Positions 292 to 7,475 of a stretch of DNA of 7,916 nucleotides are shown piece after piece. Within the stretch, counting starts at the first letter, position 1, and every line of letters begins with the position of its first letter. The position numbers were made by a program, and so were the translations under genes. The notes under the pieces were generated by a model. That model made no database searches and was not told the origin of the DNA. It saw only the letters and a list, made by a program, of their open reading frames with translations. Origin of the DNA: an archaeon (GTDB lineage Archaea > Thermoproteota > Bathyarchaeia > TCS64); assembly GCA_020444005.1 (NCBI GenBank), contig JAHLLU010000087.1, positions 1 through 7,916 of the forward strand. Direction: 5' to 3'.

Positions 292-312
292 CAGTATTTA
301 ATGCATATATAC
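292..312 (+). promoter_or_regulatory. TATA-type promoter for the RNA locus
   Basis: An AT-rich stretch with two TATA-like elements (TATTTAATG at about 292-300 and CATATATAC at about 304-312) lies just after the deacylase remnant. The second is centred about 26 bp before the first structured base at 334, the spacing expected for an archaeal TATA box. It would drive the leader RNA and possibly the tRNA as one transcript. No BRE is obvious. Confidence 0.45.
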
Positions 313-333
313 CTCAGACCTAAAACACATTAT

Positions 334-410
334 GCGGGAAACCGCAAGGTGAGCCGAGTAAAACTGGTTGGTTCCTCATGCTCGCCTTTTCTGTTACACC
401 AGTTTTATCA
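334..410 (+). ncRNA. structured leader/small RNA complementary to the adjacent tRNA variable arm
   Basis: I do not recognise a named family. The RNA opens with a GNRA-capped hairpin: GCGG (334-337), loop GAAA, CCGC (342-345). Immediately after comes a 9-bp stem with one G-U pair, AAGGTGAGC (346-354) with GCTCGCCTT (380-388). It can be extended by GAG (356-358) with CTC (375-377), leaving an apical loop at 359-374. The segment 362-375 is the exact reverse complement of tRNA positions 481-494, so most of the apical loop could pair with the variable arm. The loop start (359-368) is also a perfect 10-bp inverted repeat of 398-407, giving an alternative pseudoknot. T-rich sequence follows at 387-390. 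It may be a separate small RNA, or the 5' leader of a tRNA precursor. No C/D boxes are visible; an ACA at 396-398 is not enough to call an H/ACA guide. Confidence 0.5.
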
Positions 411-432
411 TAAAAAACTAATAGTTTGATAA
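405..432 (+). promoter_or_regulatory. AT-rich hairpin abutting the tRNA 5' end
   Basis: TTATC (405-409) pairs with GATAA (428-432), and AAACTA (415-420) pairs perfectly with TAGTTT (422-427). Together they make an AT-rich hairpin with an internal bulge, ending one base before the tRNA. It could be a processing or termination structure between leader and tRNA. Alternatively the TTTTATCATA stretch near 403-412, about 27 bp before the tRNA, may simply be the tRNA's own TATA box. Confidence 0.35.
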
Positions 433-433
433 C

Positions 434-522
434 GCGCCGGTGCCAGAGTCAGGCCTAACGGTTTCGGCTGAAGACCGAATGGAACCAACCAGTTCACGTA
501 GGTTCGAATCCCACCCGGCGCG
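434..522 (+). tRNA. class II tRNA with anticodon GAA (identity uncertain: Leu-like body, G73)
   Basis: An intronless cloverleaf of 89 nt without encoded CCA. The acceptor stem is a perfect 7 bp (434-440 with 515-521). U8 and G9 are 441-442, and the D arm is 443-461 with GG at 452-453. The anticodon stem is TTCGG/CCGAA (463-467 and 475-479) around loop CTGAAGA, so the anticodon is GAA at 470-472. The T arm is 498-514 with loop TTCGAAT. Between anticodon and T arms is an 18-nt variable region (480-497) forming a 4-bp stem GAAC/GTTC with loop CAACCA, the class II hallmark of Leu and Ser tRNAs. The D-arm layout matches archaeal tRNA-Leu, the discriminator G522 suits Ser better, and GAA would read Phe codons. 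Two A-C mismatches occur: 445/459 in the D stem and 500/512 in the T stem. It may be a specialised tRNA or a degenerating one. Confidence 0.75.
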
Positions 523-7371: not shown

Positions 7372-7391
7372 AAGCAGAATAAGTTTTTTTT

Positions 7392-7475
7392 GAGGAACTT
7401 AGCAGCCTCCAAACTAGGTATGGGCTGACCGCTCGCGGGAGTCCCCTAAGTTGAGGCCGCACCCCTCCTCTTCTT
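7392..7475 (+). ncRNA. putative structured RNA or regulatory leader of homoserine dehydrogenase
   Basis: I do not recognise this as a known riboswitch. AACTTAG (7396-7402) pairs perfectly with CTAAGTT (7446-7452), closing a junction with two hairpins: CAGCC (7403-7407) with GGCTG (7423-7427), and CCG (7429-7431) with CGG (7436-7438 region) around CTCG. GAGG occurs twice (7392-7395 and 7453-7456), and either copy can pair with CCTC at 7464-7467. This gives a closed outer stem or a short 3' hairpin followed by pyrimidine-rich TCTTCTTATT. Mutually exclusive helices next to a possible termination site are typical of a regulatory leader. A GC-rich island inside AT-rich flanks with a TATA box at the right distance supports a plus-strand transcript. 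It may end here as a small RNA or run into the gene at 7542. Confidence 0.45.

What the first reader, a model, noticed from the sequence alone, without database searches (positions are those of the whole stretch)
334..494. Leader hairpin loop is an exact 14-nt complement of the tRNA variable arm
AACTGGTTGGTTCC at 362-375 is the perfect reverse complement of 481-494. It occupies most of the apical loop of a 9-bp hairpin, while the target covers one strand, the loop and part of the other strand of the variable arm. The loop TGGTTG at 365-370 matches the variable-arm loop CAACCA exactly, as a kissing-loop seed would. A 14-base perfect match within 200 bp is very unlikely by chance. Covering the variable arm could block SerRS/LeuRS recognition or hold the precursor unfolded, forming a cis- or trans-acting tRNA control element. 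I know of no described system like it.
Basis: partly seen in the sequence, partly recalled or inferred. Interest (0 to 1): 0.78.

Follow-up and report, generated by a model that had tools for sequence, protein, structure and literature searches.

The report
Antisense RNA paired with odd tRNA
In a group of uncultured archaea, tRNA genes that look able to misread the genetic code sit beside a small RNA whose loop is complementary to that one tRNA, and the two change together from species to species, which looks like a built-in restraint on a dangerous tRNA.

Summary
The 14-nt match (362-375 / 481-494) joins a ~60-nt two-hairpin RNA to a class II tRNA with anticodon GAA (Phe) but Ser-type features (G73). 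Bathyarchaeia relatives gave six further intact pairs and several decayed ones. Each intact small RNA has its own loop with 9-16 nt of exact complementarity to the variable arm of its own tRNA, and fits the other units' tRNAs much less well on average (true assignment best of 5040 permutations). One pair was found blind, from the tRNA alone. In one the two genes are convergent, so pairing must act in trans. At one orthologous locus guide and target have both been replaced and still match. No intact tRNA has a Ser anticodon (4 UAU; 1 each GAA, AUU, AAC). A second, weaker contact touches the anticodon stem. Best reading: a dedicated antisense RNA disarms a Ser-type tRNA that would put Ser at Ile, Phe, Asn or Val codons; toxin-antitoxin-like, or a switch for regulated mistranslation. 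Pairing and co-evolution are well supported; expression, serylation, toxicity and neutralisation are untested. The literature searches made found no described system of this kind.

The parts
295..311 (+). TATA-like box of the small RNA (TATTTAATGCATATATA)
   Evidence: Sequence; A/T-rich TATA-like stretches precede the first hairpin in the other intact units, least clearly in L069 (by eye). Consensus recalled; no transcription data.
333..346 (+). First hairpin of the small RNA (GCGG-GAAA-CCGC type)
   Evidence: Fold, z -3.8 for 330-392; a first hairpin of different sequence is predicted in the five intact units folded (window, L038, L190, L069, L071) and visible by eye in L200 and L211.
347..387 (+). 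Guide hairpin (stem 347-354/380-387)
   Evidence: on 8 leaders 83.9% of stem cells are paired against 36-46% when slid, but the shuffle control for covariation is not significant (86 of 500).
352..357 (+). Second contact segment AGCCGA, complementary to tRNA nts 28-33 (window 464-469)
   Evidence: 4 of 5040 permutations as good for the 7 intact units; segment chosen after seeing the data.
362..375 (+). Guide: exact complement of the variable arm of the tRNA
387..390 (+). T-run directly after the guide hairpin, probable end of the small RNA
   Evidence: Sequence; T-rich stretches follow the guide hairpin in relatives.
403..417 (+). TATA-like A/T-rich stretch before the tRNA, possible separate promoter
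   Evidence: Sequence only.
434..522 (+). Class II tRNA, anticodon GAA (470-472), 7-bp acceptor stem, G73 at 522
464..469 (+). Anticodon-stem 5' strand plus C32 U33, target of the second contact
481..494 (+). Variable arm: target of the guide (both strands and loop)

Best explanation
The locus is a two-gene RNA module. Gene 1 makes a ~60-nt RNA with two hairpins, the second presenting a guide loop. Gene 2 makes a Ser-type class II tRNA with a non-Ser anticodon (GAA here; UAU, AUU or AAC in relatives), which if charged by SerRS would put Ser at Phe, Ile, Asn or Val codons. The guide pairs in trans with the variable arm, the main SerRS recognition element (recalled), probably starting as a loop-loop contact; a second segment pairs with the anticodon-stem 5' strand up to U33. 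This unfolds or masks the tRNA and keeps it from being charged or used. If the small RNA falls short, the tRNA is freed and mistranslates: an RNA-RNA toxin-antitoxin-like module. Shown: anatomy, pairing potential, one-to-one co-variation, replacement of guide and target together at one locus, a leader left without its tRNA in one orthologous place. Inferred: expression, serylation, toxicity, neutralisation, purpose.
For: Seven intact units (window, L038, L211, L169/L190, L071, L069, L200) with exact complements of 14, 11, 16, 12, 9 (12 of 13 with one mismatch), 13 and 14 nt; cognate mean -31.1 against non-cognate mean -15.1 kcal/mol; true assignment best of 5040 (7 intact) and of 362880 (9, with two decayed). 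Control: 20 canonical class II tRNAs from 5 unit genomes have at most 9 nt of complement within up to 380 nt on any side or strand. Blind test: a pattern for class II tRNAs with anticodon TAT gave 12 hits in 256 genomes, of which ARAGORN accepts 2; one was known and the other (L169) has an exact 12-nt complement upstream and had not been listed by leader models R1 and R2. L069 is convergent, hence trans. L211 and L190 lie at the same locus (upstream protein 42% identical, GatD-like downstream protein 84%) with different guides and arms that match in each. G73 in 7 of 7 intact units, as in this group's tRNA-Ser, against A73 in its tRNA-Leu. Non-Ser anticodons in 7 of 7. ATA 23.4 and Phe codons 39.5 per 1000 in window genes, so misreading would be widespread. 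TiaS, which makes canonical AUA decoding possible, is found in 5 of 7 genomes, so UAU tRNAs look dispensable there. L213 keeps a leader at the L038 locus with the tRNA deleted; L157 is a leader-like RNA with no tRNA beside it.
Against: No expression, charging or toxicity data. Some cross-fits are strong: the best non-cognate pairing among intact units (-24.2) exceeds the weakest cognate (-23.5), and leaders L200 and L211 fit a canonical tRNA-Ser(TGA) arm from another genome at -20.6 and -22.0. Similarity of the tRNA body favours Ser in 5 of 7 intact units but slightly Leu in the window and L071. L069 has C33 and A34, so it may not decode; L200 has A34, rare in archaea (recalled). Some tRNAs called intact have imperfect stems (T-stem mismatches in window, L169, L211; one acceptor mismatch each in L071 and L211). 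In L068 and L070 tRNA and small-RNA hairpin have both decayed, so 'the tRNA goes first' rests on L213 and L157 only. Of seven leader folds only the window's stands far from shuffles (z -3.8; L038, L069, L071 -1.7 to -1.9; L190 -0.8; L157 0.05; L068 +0.8). A control tRNA (L177) has a chance 9-nt complement upstream, as long as the exact run in L071. In the second contact L211 has only 3 exact pairs, L068 2, and the L038 leader fits the window arm better than its own.
Confidence: 0.55

Rival explanations
1. Regulated recoding rather than toxin-antitoxin: the cell benefits from switching on a Ser-inserting tRNA under some condition, and the small RNA is its off-switch.
For: Same anatomy; in three places the locus is kept or traceable in more than one genome (L038/L070/L213; L211/L190; window/L002 remnant), and the leader has no match in the plasmid and phage collections.
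Against: Decay (L068, L070, L213) and varying anticodons are odd for a beneficial recoding tRNA; ATA and Phe codons are common.
Confidence: 0.2
2. The small RNA is a guide for chemical modification of the tRNA (box C/D or H/ACA-like, or a new kind).
For: A conserved frame with a variable guide complementary to a tRNA resembles modification guides; L068 and L069 have CUGA where others have CCGA, and L068 has a near C box (ATGATGC) upstream.
Against: By eye no RUGAUGA box in the aligned leaders and no CUGA after the guide (motifs recalled); long contiguous duplex; for the window's leader no Rfam match near gathering score; none of the 7 targeted tRNAs has a Ser anticodon.
Confidence: 0.1
3. Cis attenuator: the hairpin plus T-run is a terminator that senses the tRNA product and controls read-through into the tRNA gene, like a reversed T-box.
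For: Hairpin followed by a T-rich stretch upstream of the tRNA in 6 of 7 intact units on the same strand.
Against: In L069 the tRNA is on the opposite strand, so no read-through control is possible; A/T-rich TATA-like stretches lie between the two genes in several units (by eye).
Confidence: 0.06
4. CreA-like CRISPR guide that represses the tRNA gene with Cascade.
For: CreTA exists in archaea, with RNA toxins aimed at AUA decoding (PMC8501985, abstract).
Against: Cas1 in 0 of 5 unit genomes (not a test of Cascade, and MAGs may be incomplete); the guide lies inside a closed stem; pairing runs into what would be the 5' handle and co-varies there (L038).
Confidence: 0.03
5. Neutral by-product: inverted duplication of the tRNA arm into the flank.
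For: Would give complementarity without function.
Against: Conserved hairpin frame around the guide, repeated co-variation including at one locus, absence next to the 20 canonical class II tRNAs checked.
Confidence: 0.02

Closest known systems
Bacterial allo-tRNAs (review PMC7609411; passages read)
   Same: Long variable arm, Ser identity, mostly non-Ser anticodons; UAU among the predominant ones; [quoted passage not shown]
   Different: Those have 8/4 or 9/3 acceptor branches and occur in bacteria; these are 7/5 and archaeal. The passages read mention no paired antisense RNA, and 'antisense' has 0 occurrences in that review's main text.
Nematode nev-tRNAs (PMC4300185; abstract and section list read)
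   Same: V-arm tRNAs with UAU or CCC anticodons that could misread AUA or GGG; no mistranslation was detected in worm cells.
   Different: Charged with Leu, eukaryotic; no antisense partner mentioned in the abstract.
RNA-RNA toxin-antitoxin systems: type VIII such as SdsR/RyeA (recalled; search listing only) and CreTA (PMC8501985; abstract and section list)
   Same: Both partners RNA, neighbouring genes, RNA antitoxin with specific complementarity.
   Different: There the toxin is a small RNA that is not a tRNA; CreA works through the CRISPR effector on transcription. Here the partner is a whole tRNA.
Antisense RNAs that start by loop-loop contact, such as CopA/CopT (recalled)
   Same: A guide loop that mirrors a target hairpin.
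   Different: Targets there are not tRNAs (recalled).

Membership tests
Toxin-antitoxin system (RNA-RNA) | Toxic product when expressed without partner | not testable with these tools
   Needs expression; only the anatomy (Ser-type tRNA, non-Ser anticodon) suggests it.
Toxin-antitoxin system (RNA-RNA) | Adjacent antitoxin with specific complementarity to its own toxin | tested here: met
   7 of 7 intact units; best of 5040 assignments. Complementarity only; binding not shown.
Toxin-antitoxin system (RNA-RNA) | Neutralisation by the partner | not testable with these tools
   No binding or growth data.
Allo-tRNA | 8/4 or 9/3 acceptor branch | tested here: not met
   All 7 intact units fit 7-position acceptor and 5-position T stems, with mismatches in some.
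Allo-tRNA | Ser identity with non-Ser anticodon | tested here: inconclusive
   Non-Ser anticodon and G73 in 7 of 7; body closer to Ser in 5 of 7; charging untested.
nev-tRNA | Leu identity in nematodes | tested here: not met
   G73 in 7 of 7, archaeal; the 5 tRNA-Leu sampled here have A73.
CreTA | Works with type I CRISPR-Cas | tested here: inconclusive
   Cas1 in 0 of 5 genomes; Cascade genes not searched.
Box C/D guide RNA | C (RUGAUGA) and D (CUGA) boxes with the guide upstream of D or D' (recalled) | tested here: not met
   Not seen by eye in the aligned leaders; a near C box lies upstream of L068 only.
T-box or cis attenuator | Control of a gene downstream on the same strand | tested here: not met
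   L069, 1 of 7 intact units, is convergent; the other 6 have the order a cis element needs.

The most novel reading that the evidence does not exclude
A new kind of RNA-only addiction or control module: the active agent is a tRNA that rewrites codons by inserting Ser, held in check by a dedicated two-site antisense RNA that covers its variable arm and anticodon stem, with pairs diversifying so that each antidote fits best its own tRNA. Odd tRNAs such as bacterial allo-tRNA(UAU) and nematode nev-tRNAs may have, or have lost, comparable restraints.
Probability: 0.4. Interest if true: 0.95.

Novelty: categorically new. Interest (0 to 1): 0.86.

Why it matters
As far as the searches made can tell, no tRNA with a dedicated, co-evolving antisense RNA has been described. 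It would give class II tRNAs with foreign anticodons a function that can be tested directly: are they weapons or switches held off by a partner RNA? It bears on how cells tolerate code-breaking tRNAs, on RNA-only addiction modules, and offers a natural, programmable way to switch off one tRNA.

Tried and rejected
Window-only statistics are too weak to decide. Viral contigs: pattern GTGAGCNGAGTAAAAC gave 21 hits, none with more than a 7-nt complement downstream, read as chance; a second pattern gave 0. Plasmids and phages: no leader match. Rfam: only the tRNA at gathering score; weak leader hits lie far below threshold. Leader pattern in 256 class genomes: 1 hit, G002. R1 over the class: 18 hits, 5 real, 13 chance. 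R2 over 398 phylum genomes: 17 hits, one known, none new; one chance hit (L093) lies before a cut-off ordinary tRNA with no matching guide. R2 over the class: 10 hits, the 5 known, one orphan leader (L157), 4 chance. R3 on 40 genomes: 27 hits: 7 known, two new units, one leader without tRNA, 17 chance. R3 over the class: 42 hits; 15 already looked at, 19 checked and 8: no further unit; one (L220) lies near a tRNA-Leu call with only 7 nt of complement. tRNA pattern: 12 hits; 10 not accepted by ARAGORN, of which L162 and L166 have tRNA-like 3' ends; the pattern itself misses 2 of the 4 intact UAU units (L071, L211). CRISPR-like guide: see rivals. Leu identity: set aside on G73 and on the spacing between variable and T stems, though the body score is not uniform.

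Full report
OBSERVATION. The 14-nt inverted repeat at 362-375 / 481-494 exists. The tRNA is found by ARAGORN and Rfam: class II, anticodon GAA. The upstream segment folds into two hairpins, 333-346 and 347-387. Shuffling puts the match at 1 in 20000 for this leader against this tRNA, but at 5 in 1000 for any separated pair of 14-nt arms within 250 nt in this window, so comparison was needed.

HOST AND PLACE. The gene after the tRNA (553-1560, AstE/AspA family) has its 7 relatives in the genome scan all in Bathyarchaeota MAGs (close relatives only). None of those 7 loci has a tRNA by ARAGORN or Rfam. L002 holds a tRNA 3' remnant. In L001 the two flanking genes abut; in the window the module fills the gap between them.

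HOW THE FAMILY WAS FOUND. A DNA search of seven related genomes gave a second copy in G002 with a different guide and a matching arm (L008/L068). Leader model R1 gave L069, L070 and L071. A pattern for the tRNA alone gave L169. Leader model R3, from eight sequences, gave L211, L200 and the leader-only L213 on 40 genomes, and class-wide nothing further among all 42 hits (and earlier checks). In all, 8 of 256 class genomes hold at least a leader (G001, G002, G004, G249, G250, G251, G253, G256); 5 of them hold intact pairs (G249 two), which with the window makes seven intact units. A sample of 398 genomes of the phylum, partly the same genomes, added none. Members may have been missed: the leader models were trained on this group, and searches over 40 genomes used strict filters.

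CO-VARIATION. Guides and arms of the seven intact units match at 14 (window), 11 (L038), 16 (L211), 12 (L169), 9 exact or 12 of 13 (L071), 13 (L069) and 14 nt (L200). Cross-pairing among them averages -15.1 kcal/mol (best -24.2) against -23.5 to -37.2 for cognates, and the true assignment is the best of all 5040; with decayed L068 and L070 it is the best of 362880. L038 and L070 are orthologous and share a guide, so they cross-match. Against the variable arms of 20 canonical class II tRNAs the nine leaders reach -12.6 to -22.0, the highest being L211 and L200 with a tRNA-Ser(TGA) of another genome (seven leaders gave -11.8 to -16.0 with slightly shorter arms). Those 20 tRNAs have no such neighbour (longest complement 9 nt within up to 380 nt, less where contigs end); they are a length-picked part of a capped list. 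L211 and L190 lie between the same two genes in two genomes (DUF3786 protein 42% and GatD-like protein 84% identical), yet guide and arm are both different and both matched. In L069 the genes are convergent. Selection on RNA-RNA pairing in trans is the simplest reading.

SECOND CONTACT. A segment near the 5' side of the guide hairpin (AGCCGA in the window) is complementary to tRNA nts 28-33: 6, 5, 3, 7, 6, 5 and 7 nt in window, L038, L211, L169, L071, L069 and L200; 4 of 5040 permutations do as well; with L068 (2 nt) and L070 (4 nt) 68 of 100000. I found this after looking, and some leaders fit another unit's stem as well as or better than their own, so it is weaker. The order of the two contacts is not collinear, so a complex using both would be pseudoknotted, or the two are used in turn. 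The segment overlaps the leader's own stem, so binding would open that hairpin.

THE tRNA. In the sampled genomes tRNA-Ser carries G73 and tRNA-Leu A73 (15 Ser and 5 Leu; the script printed T for one Ser, L147, because ARAGORN's record there is shifted by one base). All seven intact units have G73 and 1-2 nt between variable stem and T stem (Ser 0-2 in 14 of 15, the shifted L147 3; Leu 3-4). Body similarity is best to Ser in 5 of 7, slightly to Leu in the window and L071. Anticodons: GAA, UAU (L038, L211, L169, L071), AUU (L200), AAC (L069, with C33). None is a Ser anticodon. If charged with Ser they would misread common codons. TiaS is found in 5 of 7 unit genomes, among them two of the three with intact UAU units (G249, G256); it was not found in G251 and G253, whose completeness is not told.

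DECAY. G249 has an intact unit between a radical-SAM activase-like gene and an alpha/beta hydrolase gene; at the same place G001 has a decayed one and G250 a leader with the tRNA deleted. G002 has a decayed unit and a separate tRNA remnant. G256 has a leader-like RNA beside a DNA-ligase gene with no tRNA seen next to it. This birth and death fits addiction modules, but would also fit a dispensable regulator.

MECHANISM. I propose that the small RNA binds and disarms the tRNA. Steps shown: pairing potential, specificity, co-evolution. Steps inferred: both RNAs are made; SerRS charges the free tRNA; binding stops charging or decoding; release is harmful or regulated.

KNOWN SYSTEMS. Searches of the held papers found allo-tRNAs, nev-tRNAs and CreTA; in the listings and the papers opened (four: PMC7609411 and PMC9499178 by passages, PMC4300185 and PMC8501985 by abstract) I saw no antisense RNA paired with a tRNA gene. 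The library is open-access PMC only, and the original allo-tRNA paper was not held. [quoted passage not shown] the present units would be the first I know of with a visible partner.

Noticed in passing
163-165: In-frame TAG in the upstream AstE/AspA-like reading frame (ends 270), where L001 and L005 have a sense codon; TAG (3), TAA (3) and TGA (1) all end other window genes.
   Followed up: partly
429-440 / 515-526: The acceptor stem is extended by flanking bases to 12 perfect pairs, so G73 could pair with C433 in the precursor.
   Followed up: no
359-368 / 398-407: Ten-base inverted repeat inside the leader region that would compete with the guide: a possible alternative fold.
   Followed up: no
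7385-7475: Stretch before the homoserine-dehydrogenase-like gene that folds better than most shuffles (z -2.2, 5 of 200 as good); no relevant Rfam match there. Possibly a structured RNA.
   Followed up: partly
L157:1695-1775: Leader-like RNA without a neighbouring tRNA in G256, beside an ATP-dependent DNA ligase gene; target unknown.
   Followed up: partly
L002:5907-5960: 3' half of a class II tRNA before the AstE/AspA gene in G002, a remnant at the window's locus.
   Followed up: partly
L069:1501-1700: The tRNA of this unit has C at position 33 and anticodon AAC, unusual for a decoding tRNA.
   Followed up: no
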